From contig JADFVZ010000050.1 in the NCBI GenBank assembly GCA_015222805.1, forward strand, positions 1 to 48,428: 48,428 nucleotides of DNA. The letters run 5' to 3'. The translations under genes and the position numbers were made by a program. The notes beneath the pieces are model-generated. The model made no database searches and was not told where the DNA came from. It saw only the letters and a list, made by a program, of their open reading frames with translations. This DNA comes from Pseudomonadota bacterium (lineage in GTDB: Bacteria > Pseudomonadota > Gammaproteobacteria > Xanthomonadales > SZUA-36). Of this stretch, positions 33,179 to 45,566 are shown in pieces. Each line of letters starts with the position of its first letter. Position 1 is the first letter of the stretch.

Positions 33179-34581
33179 TGCATTCGCAAGTGAATTCGCA
33201 TATGAATCTGCAAAGGCAATCTTTTTTTGCAGAACAACTGCTAAGTGAGGAGGGATGGCAATCCTCCAAATTCATCAATGTTGATGACCAGGGCATTATT
33301 GTCAGCATTACCGATGTTGCTGAAACGCAATGTAAAACCAGCTTTAAGGGTGCGGTTATACCCGGGATGATCAATCTGCACAGCCATGCATTTCAGCGCA
33401 GCCTGGTTGGCAGGACCGGTCTAAAGGGGGCAACTGATGACAGCTTCTGGAGTTGGCGTGAAGCCATGTATCAGCAGCTTGGGCAAATGGACCCGGGGAT
33501 CATAGAGGCGATTACCGCCTACTGCTATATGGAATTGCTTCAGGGTGGCTATACTTCTGTGGCAGAGTTCCACTACCTGCATCACCAGGCAGGAGGTGCG
33601 CCTTATGCTGATCCTGCAGAAACATCCCGACGAATTTTAGCCGCGGCTGAGACCGCGGGCATCGGCCTGACTATACTGCCTGTGTTGTATAGCTGGGCAG
33701 GATTTGGTCAACAGCCACTGGCGCAAAGGCAAACACCCTTCGGGCATGGCATCGACAGTTATCTGGATCTTCTTGATAGCCTGGACAAACATTGTAAGGA
33801 AGCAGCCTTATCTGACTGGGGGGTTGCGCCGCACTCACTCAGGGCGGTTGATCAGGTTCAACTGCATGAGTTACTCGACACCCTTGCTCGGAAAAAATTT
33901 AGCGGGCCGCTGCATATTCATATTGCAGAACAGCAGCAGGAAGTTGCCGATTGCATCAATTTTTATGGTGCACGTCCGGTTCAATGGCTGCTGGATAACC
34001 TGCCGGTTAATGAAAACTGGTGCCTTGTACATGCCACCCATGTGAATGAAGAAGAGCTGGAAATGATGCAGCGGGCAGGGGTGGTTGCAGGCTTATGTCC
34101 GACAACTGAAGCTGATTTGGGTGATGGAATATTTCCCGCAAGCCGCTGGCAGGAACTTGGCGGTGCCTGGGGTATCGGTTCTGACAGCAACCTCTGTGTG
34201 AATGCCCCGGAAGAACTGCGCCTACTGGAATTTGGCCAGCGCCTGCGTGACCAGCAGCGAAACCTTATGGCAGCACCCGGAGAAACGGTGGGTGCTGAAC
34301 TTTATGCGAGTGCGTTATCCGGAGGTTTGCAGGCACTGGCAAAACCTCCGGCCAGGGGTTTTACACCCGGCCAACGTGCTGATTTCCTGGTGCTGAATCA
34401 AAATCACCCATTGCTAATGGGTAAAGAAAAAGATCAACTGCTGGATACCTGGGTATTTGCCGGCAGTGCTGAAATGTTGTCACAGGTTTGGGTGGCTGGT
34501 CAGTGCAGGGTAAAAAATGGTCGGCACATCGAAAAAGATAAAATCGAGTCGGAATGGCGTCGCCGGGTTGTTAAATACTGA
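33178..34581 (+). CDS. hutF: Formimidoylglutamate deiminase
   Basis: The 467-residue amidohydrolase converts N-formimino-glutamate to N-formyl-glutamate plus ammonia. Metal-site motifs are INLHSHAFQR near the N-terminus, HIHIAEQQQEV in the middle, HATHVNEEE and GIGSDSNLCVN. SFWSWREAMY and EFHYLHH are typical of HutF within this superfamily. The start ATG 33178 overlaps the hutG stop as TAATG; a GTG four codons earlier is possible but lies in hutG. It is followed with a one-base overlap by the DUF938 gene. Confidence 0.95.
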   Translation: MHSQVNSHMNLQRQSFFAEQLLSEEGWQSSKFINVDDQGIIVSITDVAETQCKTSFKGAVIPGMINLHSHAFQRSLVGRTGLKGATDDSFWSWREAMYQQLGQMDPGIIEAITAYCYMELLQGGYTSVAEFHYLHHQAGGAPYADPAETSRRILAAAETAGIGLTILPVLYSWAGFGQQPLAQRQTPFGHGIDSYLDLLDSLDKHCKEAALSDWGVAPHSLRAVDQVQLHELLDTLARKKFSGPLHIHIAEQQQEVADCINFYGARPVQWLLDNLPVNENWCLVHATHVNEEELEMMQRAGVVAGLCPTTEADLGDGIFPASRWQELGGAWGIGSDSNLCVNAPEELRLLEFGQRLRDQQRNLMAAPGETVGAELYASALSGGLQALAKPPARGFTPGQRADFLVLNQNHPLLMGKEKDQLLDTWVFAGSAEMLSQVWVAGQCRVKNGRHIEKDKIESEWRRRVVKY

Positions 34582-42540: not shown

Positions 42541-42603
42541 TAAGGAACTGCTGACGTATTCGTGGCTGAGCATTTTTAGCCAGGATGGGTGAGAAGTTCC
42601 TTA
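42541..42603 (+). promoter_or_regulatory. Folded leader over the mnmG start
   Basis: TAAGGAACT (42541-42549) and AGTTCCTTA (42595-42603) are perfect 9-base complements, enclosing an inner hairpin TGGCT...AGCCA (about 42563-42582). The first available mnmG start, GTG 42589, lies within this structure. A regulatory leader is inferred. Confidence 0.45.
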
Positions 42604-44526
42604 GCTTACTCGGGACTATTTGTTTTGCTAAATCCACATAATTCCAACAGGCAGTATGATGTCATCGTTATCGGTGGTGGCCACGCCGGCACCGAGGCGG
42701 CACTTGCGGCTGCCCGTACCGGGGCTGCAACTTTGTTGCTGACCCACAATATAGAAACGATTGGCCAGATGAGCTGTAATCCCGCTATCGGCGGGATCGG
42801 CAAGGGCCACCTTGTACGTGAGGTGGATGCCCTGGGCGGCATCATGGCGCAGGCAGCGGATGCGGCGGGTATACAGTTCAGGACACTCAATGCCAGCAAG
42901 GGCCCGGCGGTACGGGCTACCCGTGCACAGTGTGATCGTACGCTGTATAAATCATTTATCCGGGAGGCCGTTGAGTATCAGCCTGGTTTGCAGCTGTTTC
43001 AGGCAGCGGTTGATGACCTGATCGTTGAACAGGGCAAGGTCTGCGGATGTATAACCAGTACCGGTTTACACTTTATGGCGCCTGCTGTGGTACTTACTGT
43101 GGGCACTTTCCTTGGTGGCGTGATTCATATCGGCGACCAGCAGCAGGGCGGTGGCCGTGCCGGCGACCAGCCCTCGAATGCACTGGCGCAACGCCTCAGA
43201 GCCCTGCCGTTTACAGTTGGACGCCTTAAAACAGGCACTCCCCCGCGGATTGATGGCCGCAGCGTGGACTTCAGTGTGCTTGAAGAACAGCCAGGTGACC
43301 AGCCGATGCCGGCGATGTCTTATCTTGGCAGTGCCGCCGATCATCCTCAGCAGAGATGTTGCTGGATTGCCTACACAACAGAGGAAACTCATCAGATTAT
43401 CCGTGAATCGCTGCATCTTTCAGCCATTCACAGCGGCAACATCGAAGGCAGTGGCCCGCGCTATTGCCCCTCAATTGAAGATAAAATCACCCGATTTGCT
43501 GATAAAAACTCTCATCAGGTATTTATAGAGCCTGAAGGATTGAATACCACCGAGCTCTATCCGAATGGTTTATCCACATCCCTGCCATTTGCGGTGCAGG
43601 AAGCCTTCATTCGCAGTATGAAAGGCTTCGAGACGGCCCACCTGAGCCGTCCAGGTTATGCGATTGAGTATGATTACTTTGATCCGCGCGGTTTACAGCC
43701 TAGTCTGGAAACCCGCTATGTTGATGGCCTGTTTTTTGCCGGTCAGATTAATGGTACCACCGGCTATGAAGAAGCCGCAGCCCAGGGCCTGATGGCTGGC
43801 TTGAATGCCGCACGTAAAGTAAACGGGCAGTCTGTATGGACGCCACGGCGTGACCAGGCCTATATCGGCGTACTGATCGATGACCTGATCAGCCAGGGTA
43901 CCAAAGAACCTTATCGGATGTTTACCTCACGGGCAGAATATCGATTGACTCTGCGGGAAGACAATGCGGACCTGCGCTTAACCGAAAAGGGCAGGGAACT
44001 GGGCCTGGTTAATGATATTCGCTGGCAGGCTTTTGAGAGTAAACGAGAGGCTATTACAAAAGAACAGCAGCGACTTGGGGAAATCTGGTTAACCCCCGCG
44101 AATGCAGCAGGCAAGGATTTGAACAGCCGTCACGGGGTAGGTTTATCTAAAGAAGTCAAAGCCCTGGACTTACTTAAACGCCCTGAGATGAACTATACCA
44201 AGCTGCTTGAAATTACCGGACTTGGTCCAGGGGTAGCTGACCCGAAAGTGGCTGAGCAGGTAGAAATCCAGGTGAAGTATGCGGGTTACCTCAATCGCCA
44301 GCAGCAGGAAGTCAGCCGCAACCAACGTATGGAAAACCAGCGTATTCCTGATGATTTTGAGTATTCCAGCGTTAATGGTCTATCGGCAGAAGTTGAAGAG
44401 AAACTCACTGACCAACGCCCGCAAACCATTGGTCAGGCTGGACGAATTCCGGGTGTAACACCTGCGTCAATATCCCTGTTACTGGTTTATCTCAAGCGCC
44501 ATGCGGCCGAGAGGAATGTTGCCTGA
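42589..44526 (+). CDS. mnmG: tRNA uridine-5-carboxymethylaminomethyl modification enzyme MnmG
   Basis: The 645-residue FAD enzyme, with MnmE, modifies U34 of several tRNAs. The FAD motif is [37 protein letters not shown], seen in part as [13 protein letters not shown], plus [27 protein letters not shown] and [14 protein letters not shown] are strong family marks. The C-terminal region is complete. No ATG start exists: an in-frame TAG at 42577 means the first choice is GTG 42589, and TTG 42625 is an alternative giving a more family-like length. No good ribosome site is seen. The usual partner rsmG does not follow. Confidence 0.95.
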
Positions 44527-44582
44527 ATAGTTGATGAAATACACTTTTAGGTTTGATTAAAATTAAACATCACATTAACGCT

Positions 44583-44610
44583 TTGTTTACGCTCAGACTG
44601 GCAATATATA
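44583..44610 (+). promoter_or_regulatory. Promoter for the small RNA candidate
   Basis: TTGTTT (44583-44588), a 16-base spacer, and TATATA (44605-44610) lie 5 bases before the first paired base of the RNA at 44615. Confidence 0.6.
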
Positions 44611-44614
44611 GTCA

Positions 44615-44732
44615 TCAGGGTATCAGCAAGTGTGTTAATGCACTCCGTGATTAGACAACACTTGTCCCACACCTCCCTCTCTGCGATACCCTGAAATTCC
44701 AAACCCCGGTTTTCCCTGACCGGGGTTTTTTT
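44615..44732 (+). ncRNA. Candidate structured small RNA with its own terminator
   Basis: About 118 bases between mnmG and the minus-strand gene fold well. An outer 10-base-pair stem pairs TCAGGGTATC (44615-44624) with GATACCCTGA (44685-44694). Inside it CAAGTGT (44627-44633) pairs with ACACTTG (44658-44664), capped by a TAAT-G-CAC / GTG-ATTA arm with one bulged G. A pyrimidine-rich single-stranded strip (44665-44684, core ACCTCCCTCTCT) separates the two stems on the 3' side. A rho-independent terminator follows at once (44701-44732). The promoter is right in front. I cannot match it to a known RNA family. Confidence 0.65.
44701..44732 (+). terminator. Rho-independent terminator of the small RNA
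   Basis: AAACCCCGGT (44701-44710) pairs perfectly with ACCGGGGTTT (44719-44728), followed by more T residues up to 44732. Confidence 0.9.
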
Positions 44733-44759
44733 GTGCGCCAGGCATGGCGCACAAAAAAA
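44726..44759. terminator. Perfect palindrome joining two opposing terminators
   Basis: A 15-base arm (TTTTTTTGTGCGCCA, 44726-44740) pairs with 44745-44759 around a GGCA loop. The core GTGCGCCA/TGGCGCAC is flanked by T and A runs, so it can end transcripts from both strands. Confidence 0.75.
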
Positions 44760-44787
44760 CCACCCCGAAGAGGATTCGGGGTGGTTT
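44757..44787 (-). terminator. Terminator of the 44808 minus-strand gene
   Basis: A 13-base perfect stem (44757-44769 with 44775-44787, loop GAGGA) is followed on the minus strand by a T-run corresponding to the A residues at 44753-44759. It lies 20 bases after the stop of the 44808-45566 gene. Confidence 0.88.
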
Positions 44788-44807: not shown

Positions 44808-45566
44808 CTATTTGGTATTCAGGTCGGGAAGGGCCCGGACGATCCGGCTGCGGGCAGTTTTATAACTGTCGCGGTAATTACCCAGTAGTTCGTCAAAGTC
44901 ATCTTCATCCATATTCTTTTTCATGACTTCGGCGAAAGTTGGAGAAGGTTCGGCCATATCGGCCCAGGACTCGGCCGGGAAGACGAAGGTGGCGCTATTG
45001 CCATATCCGCCGGAAATATTCCATGAGAGGGCGTAATCATTTTTAAAACCGCCCTTTTGCAGGGTTTCATGAATAACTTTGAGGTGTTTGCTGAAATCCA
45101 TGCCGGGTTTGATGTGCATATCACGCAAGGTGTAAAATTTATATTTCTTGCCTTCAGTCCAATGGTAGATTTCATCATCACCCATGGTCAGGTACTTTTC
45201 TGCATTTTCTATCAGTGGTGCAACATTCAGGGTCCAGAACTTACCAAGATCATCATCCCAGATATTTTCCATGGCATCCAGGTCAGCCCAGTTATGGTTA
45301 GCACTGCGGGCAATATATTGGCCGGTATCTGGACCGGTTTCTACTTTGTACCAATTCCAGTTAGCGTGCCCGGGTTTTTTGTTGTAGAGGTTATGAAAGC
45401 TTTTAATGGCATCTTCAAAGATCTGGTGCTTACCATCGGTAATATCCATTTGCCAGACTACTGCAACGTTGTCTGTTTTTTCCTCGTCTGCTGCGATAAC
45501 GGCCGTACTCAAAAACATACAGGCCAGCAACAGAATTAAGAGGGCTTTTATTGGTGAATTATTCAT
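44808..45566 (-). CDS. Secreted protein of unknown function
   Basis: The 252-residue protein has a clear signal peptide (ALLILLLACMFLSTAVIAA, cut near residue 25). The mature part is rich in Trp, Asp and Lys and appears to hold two similar halves, each with a long helix and a hydrophobic strand (VAVVWQMDITDGKHQIFEDA; KYKFYTLRDMHIKPGMDF), as in dimeric alpha/beta-barrel-type domains. This fold guess is tentative. A GGGAGA ribosome site precedes the ATG. It has its own strong terminator and no obvious operon partner. Confidence 0.8.
   Translation of the reverse strand: MNNSPIKALLILLLACMFLSTAVIAADEEKTDNVAVVWQMDITDGKHQIFEDAIKSFHNLYNKKPGHANWNWYKVETGPDTGQYIARSANHNWADLDAMENIWDDDLGKFWTLNVAPLIENAEKYLTMGDDEIYHWTEGKKYKFYTLRDMHIKPGMDFSKHLKVIHETLQKGGFKNDYALSWNISGGYGNSATFVFPAESWADMAEPSPTFAEVMKKNMDEDDFDELLGNYRDSYKTARSRIVRALPDLNTK

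What the first reader, a model, noticed from the sequence alone, without database searches (positions are those of the whole stretch)
44615..44732. Candidate unannotated small RNA between mnmG and the 44808 gene
A promoter, a multi-stem fold (10 bp outer stem, 7 bp inner stem, 7 bp bulged arm) and a rho-independent terminator follow each other without gaps in a stretch that encodes no protein. The combination is what a trans-acting small RNA gene looks like. I cannot match it to a named family.
Basis: seen in the sequence. Interest (0 to 1): 0.75.

Follow-up and report, generated by a model that had tools for sequence, protein, structure and literature searches.

The report
Unnamed regulatory RNA gene after mnmG
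Just downstream of the tRNA-modification gene mnmG there is a real, previously unnamed RNA gene of about 120 bases, found at the same spot in nearly the whole bacterial family; it probably dampens messenger RNAs by pairing through a conserved C-rich stretch, but its targets are unknown.

Summary
The 10-bp outer stem, 7-bp inner stem and terminator are at the stated coordinates, and the fold beats all 200 shuffles (z -6.25). The promoter is weak by consensus alone. No Rfam 15 family matches.

Comparative evidence turns the candidate into a gene family. An RNA gene lies on the same strand just downstream of mnmG across the window's family. A covariance model finds it in 31 of 39 family genomes, in none of 260 other genomes of the order and none of 369 sampled across the class. 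The closing stem shows compensatory changes at four pairs. A 5' tail and a loop core, GUCCCCACACUUC, do not vary. Upstream lie four direct repeats exactly 11 bp apart, then a -10 box.

The window's genus carries a diverged form: same place, promoter repeats, C-rich segment and terminator, but rearranged stems, so the model misses it.

Best explanation: a trans-acting, C-rich-seed sRNA controlled by an OmpR-type response regulator, repressing mRNAs with G-rich sites near their starts. It works like sX13 but is not sX13: RF02232 misses it, and a separate sX13-like candidate lies by polA. Targets and regulator remain unidentified; PhoB is unlikely.

The parts
42589..44526 (+). mnmG (gidA), the constant upstream neighbour
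   Evidence: 645-aa ORF; orthologues in 37 of 39 family genomes
44563..44591 (+). three direct repeats (TTAAAC, TTAACG, TTTACG) with AC every 11 bp: likely response-regulator site
   Evidence: AC at 44567, 44578 and 44589; four such repeats in all 28 core relatives, three in the window and G001
44603..44612 (+). probable -10 region (AATATATAGT)
   Evidence: position matches the TATGCT-like box of relatives within a few bases; weak by consensus
44613..44732 (+). sRNA gene, diverged form of the mnmG-linked family; 5' end inferred
   Evidence: fold z -6.25; similarity of promoter plus body to the core family above all 200 shuffles
44615..44624 (+). closing stem, 5' arm
   Evidence: present in G001 and G002
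44627..44633 (+). inner stem, 5' arm CAAGTGT
   Evidence: CAAGUG/CACUUG kept in G001 and G002
44658..44664 (+). inner stem, 3' arm ACACTTG
44664..44678 (+). C-rich segment GTCCCACACCTCCCT, the likely seed
   Evidence: matches the invariant loop core GTCCCCACACTTC of the family; mean unpaired probability 0.73 against 0.40 for the whole RNA
44685..44694 (+). closing stem, 3' arm
   Evidence: covariation of the equivalent stem in relatives
44701..44732 (+). rho-independent terminator with seven T
44757..44787 (-). terminator of the convergent gene 44808-45566, not part of the sRNA

Best explanation
This is a stand-alone small regulatory RNA gene, the diverged form in the window's genus of a family-wide RNA placed just after mnmG. 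Its promoter likely uses an OmpR/PhoB-class response regulator that binds direct repeats 11 bp apart in place of a good -35 box. The transcript of about 120 nt ends at its own terminator. A closing stem holds an unpaired C-rich segment (UCCC(C)ACAC...) in place. That segment probably pairs with G-rich sites at or near the ribosome-binding sites of several mRNAs, with or without Hfq, and lowers their translation. Shown: the anatomy, synteny, conserved promoter architecture, covariation in relatives, invariant C-rich loop core, and an hfq gene in the genome. Inferred: expression, class of regulator, trans pairing and repression.
For: Same place and strand after mnmG in nearly all family genomes; model R1 in 31 of 39 family genomes, none elsewhere in the order or class sample. 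Covariation in the closing stem. Invariant tail and C-rich loop core. Own promoter: four repeats 11 bp apart in all 28 core members. The window's promoter plus body aligns to the core family above all 200 shuffles. The C-rich segment is open. Hfq is encoded. C-rich loops acting on G-rich sites near start codons are established for sX13 (PMC3771888) and UCCC motifs for LhrC (PMC4132741).
Against: No transcript data. No shared target at gene starts by simple pattern search. The window's form is diverged and not found by R1; G002 alone does not exceed shuffles in the alignment test (14 of 100). The loop hairpin stem is invariant, so only the closing stem has covariation. The invariant loop could bind a protein instead of mRNA.
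Confidence: 0.68

Rival explanations
1. A 3'-UTR-derived sRNA or 3'-UTR element: the structure is mainly the tail and terminator of the mnmG transcript, released by processing or stabilising mnmG mRNA.
For: It always follows mnmG on the same strand, and no terminator was seen between the two. Read-through would end at the same terminator.
Against: A conserved control region with 11-bp repeats and a -10 box lies between mnmG and the RNA; the distance from the mnmG stop to the RNA varies while promoter and RNA stay together.
Confidence: 0.13
2. A protein-binding or sponge RNA: the invariant loop GUCCCCACACUUCUA is the site of an RNA-binding protein or another sRNA, and the RNA acts by titration.
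For: The loop is invariant over many bases, more than a short seed needs; no shared mRNA target at starts was found.
Against: The window's genus changed the loop into an open stretch with extra C-rich sequence, which suits base pairing better than a structured protein site. No GGA motifs typical of CsrA sponges are seen in the conserved loops (sequence).
Confidence: 0.12
3. In the window's genus the element is a decaying remnant of the family's sRNA and no longer functional.
For: Model R1 does not recognise it. In two related species (G029, G032) the RNA has visibly lost its C-rich loop, and G012 lacks it.
Against: In G000, G001 and G002 the outer stem, inner stem, C-rich segment and terminator all persist despite divergence; the window fold is strong.
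Confidence: 0.06

Closest known systems
sX13 (Rfam RF02232), Xanthomonadaceae sRNA downstream of polA
   Same: About 115 nt, own gene after a housekeeping gene, restricted to one family, C-rich unpaired motifs (CCCC) meant for G-rich sites near start codons, terminator (PMC3771888).
   Different: Different locus and sequence; sX13 has three hairpins with C-rich loops, this RNA has one C-rich segment inside a closing stem. RF02232 does not match it, and the family has separate sX13-like candidates by polA.
LhrC of Listeria monocytogenes
   Same: UCCC-type C-rich seed; expression depends on a two-component system, LisRK (PMC4132741).
   Different: Multicopy, unrelated sequence, distant phylum. 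Here only one copy is seen in the window's genome, and the regulator is inferred.
RsaE and related UCCC-motif sRNAs of Gram-positive bacteria
   Same: C-rich motif used against Shine-Dalgarno-like sequences (named in PMC4132741).
   Different: No sequence or structural homology known; analogy only.
Spot 42 (RF00021), P15 (RF00627), NsiR1 (RF02399)
   Same: Small RNAs with a terminator that gave weak covariance-model scores.
   Different: All far below gathering (Spot 42: 15 against 80 bits; NsiR1: 25.6 against 39), NsiR1 driven by the terminator.

Membership tests
sX13 (RF02232) | match to covariance model RF02232 at gathering score | tested here: not met
   no match for the window or mnmG loci of relatives, nor with permissive threshold; positive control at polA in Stenotrophomonas, Luteimonas, Dyella
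sX13 (RF02232) | gene downstream of polA | tested here: not met
   this gene follows mnmG; a separate C-rich RNA candidate lies by polA in G000, G021 and G010, without similarity to it
mnmG-linked sRNA family defined here (model R1) | position just downstream of mnmG, same strand, with terminator and 11-bp-repeat promoter | tested here: met
mnmG-linked sRNA family defined here (model R1) | match to the core covariance model R1 | tested here: not met
   no match at the window's sRNA; homology rests on synteny, promoter and alignment above all 200 shuffles
C-rich-seed trans-acting sRNAs (as a way of working) | unpaired C-rich segment conserved across species | tested here: met
C-rich-seed trans-acting sRNAs (as a way of working) | G-rich mRNA targets repressed through that segment | tested here: inconclusive
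   simple pattern searches gave no shared target at gene starts; no experiment possible
C-rich-seed trans-acting sRNAs (as a way of working) | discrete independent transcript | not testable with these tools
   needs RNA-seq or Northern blot
Pho regulon member (PhoB box promoter) | TGTCA-type repeats as at pst promoters of the same genome | tested here: not met
   pstS-like genes in G000 and G001 have TTGTCACATAACCGTCAT-type boxes, unlike TTAAC/TTTAC here

The most novel reading that the evidence does not exclude
A family-wide sRNA whose control region and C-rich seed are conserved while its scaffold was rebuilt in one genus: the closing stem's 5' arm moved to the 5' end, and the seed moved from a hairpin loop to an open segment. 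It would be a dedicated output of one unidentified two-component system, and a clear case of a regulatory RNA evolving new structure around a fixed seed.
Probability: 0.3. Interest if true: 0.55.

Novelty: new member of a known kind. Interest (0 to 1): 0.42.

Why it matters
It adds an unlisted RNA family, with covariation and a fixed genomic address, to a group related to Lysobacterales known mostly from fragmented assemblies. With the polA-linked RNAs it suggests that C-rich-loop sRNAs, best known there from sX13, are a wider regulatory style in this lineage. The fixed 11-bp repeats make its controlling regulator a directly testable question.

Tried and rejected
Rfam at gathering and permissive thresholds: nothing real. 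sX13 homology: rejected. PhoB control: made unlikely by the pst promoters of the same genomes. The first promoter pattern search used wrong spacings, so its null result is void; the corrected search found the sRNA promoters of core relatives plus other hits at about control level. Targets by full loop complement or GTGTGGGG before ATG: nothing shared at gene starts. Pseudoknot between invariant tail and loop: no stronger than shuffles. Hidden small protein: no conserved ORF. Phage or viral origin: no match. A weak R1 match at 34151 in the window lacks the C-rich core and scores as chance.

Full report
Observation. The outer stem is 44615-44624 / 44685-44694, the inner stem 44627-44633 / 44658-44664, and the terminator 44701-44728 with T to 44732. 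The region folds far better than 200 dinucleotide shuffles (z -6.25), although the terminator contributes to that. A consensus scan finds the terminator but no good sigma-70 promoter at the start. No Rfam 15 family reaches threshold; weak matches rest largely on the terminator. No ORF is conserved in the stretch.

Homologues. By plain DNA similarity only G001, of the same genus, matches over nearly the full length (83%); other hits are confined to the terminator region. Looking instead downstream of mnmG in the family's genomes showed an RNA-like unit at the same place and strand in almost all of them. Consensus: UGCAAGUUGACUGUGCCU, then a closing stem such as GGUGUAUCGC...GCGAUACACC, enclosing AGGCA-GUCCCCACACUUCUA-UGCCU, then a terminator. 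Of 39 family genomes, model R1 finds it in 31. Three of the window's genus carry the diverged form. Two (G029, G032) keep promoter, part of the tail and terminator but have lost the C-rich loop. One (G012) lacks it. In two incomplete ones (G003, G017) mnmG was not found either. R1 finds nothing in 260 other genomes of the order or in 369 genomes sampled across the class, which held no R1-positive family member (the order search is the positive control). Large searches used stricter filters, so diverged forms elsewhere may be missed.

Selection on structure. In 27 distinct core sequences the closing stem shows double changes at four pairs (for example UA to CG, CG to UA), 98% of cells paired, 28 double-changed cells against 9.0 in shuffles, and slid controls at most 48% paired. 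The loop hairpin stem is nearly invariant, so it gives no covariation evidence. The loop core GUCCCCACACUUC and the tail AAGUUGACUGUGC do not vary, while MnmG of these genomes is only about 70% identical to the window's.

The window's form. G000, G001 and G002 have the closing stem's 5' arm at the very 5' end, an inner CAAGUG/CACUUG helix, and the C-rich segment in an open stretch (GUCCCACACCUCCCU in the window) rather than in a hairpin loop. Alignment of promoter plus body to the core family exceeds all 200 shuffles, mean score 31.6 against 23.4 +/- 2.0; each half alone, and G002, are weaker. With synteny and promoter repeats I take it as the orthologue. Rewiring of the scaffold is an inference.

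Promoter. All 28 core members have AC at four positions exactly 11 bp apart, ending about 10 bp before a TATGCT-like -10 box; the window and G001 have three, G002 fewer. Four such spacings occur at 2.6e-5 per position in all fetched loci, sRNA promoters included. An 11-bp direct repeat next to the -10 box is typical of OmpR/PhoB-class activators (general knowledge, not tested). pstS-like genes of the same genus carry the usual TGTCA-type Pho boxes, which differ, so PhoB is unlikely. The regulator is not identified.

Mechanism. The C-rich segment is among the more open parts of the RNA (mean unpaired 0.73-0.96 against 0.40-0.45 overall), and Hfq is encoded in the genome. sX13 uses CCCC loops against GGGG motifs near start codons and does not need Hfq (PMC3771888). 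LhrC uses UCCC motifs and depends on a two-component system (PMC4132741). By analogy this RNA most likely represses several mRNAs. My target searches were simple and found nothing shared at gene starts, so this step is unproven.

Known or new. It is not sX13: RF02232 finds sX13 by polA in Stenotrophomonas, Luteimonas and Dyella but never at mnmG, and the family, including G000, has separate polA-linked C-rich RNA candidates without similarity to this one. One targeted paper search linking small RNAs and mnmG turned up no obvious description. Verdict: a real, unlisted sRNA family, a new member of a known kind.

Noticed in passing
L282:1170-1314 (+), about G000:C1:24946-25090; also L278 and L280: Downstream of polA the window's genome and relatives carry an sX13-like RNA candidate (C-rich apical segments and a terminator), in G000 and G021 on the strand opposite to polA. 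sX13 was described as confined to Xanthomonadaceae; RF02232 also matches in Dyella (L281:2757-2875), and these family members lie below its threshold.
   Followed up: partly
window 44733-44752; L027:3559-3576: A palindromic element GTGCGCCAGGCATGGCGC(AC) sits immediately after the sRNA terminator in the window and, in another genus (G018), at the same spot; it looks like a REP-type repeat.
   Followed up: partly
L013, L016 (G032, G029): Two related species keep the promoter repeats, part of the 5' tail and the terminator of the sRNA but have lost the C-rich loop: a possible decay or change of function.
   Followed up: no
L027:3689-3976: A group II intron (RF02001, RF01998) begins shortly after the sRNA gene in G018.
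   Followed up: no
L020 (G010 mnmG): The mnmG match in G010 contains one in-frame TAG inside the aligned stretch; it may lie before the true start codon.
   Followed up: no
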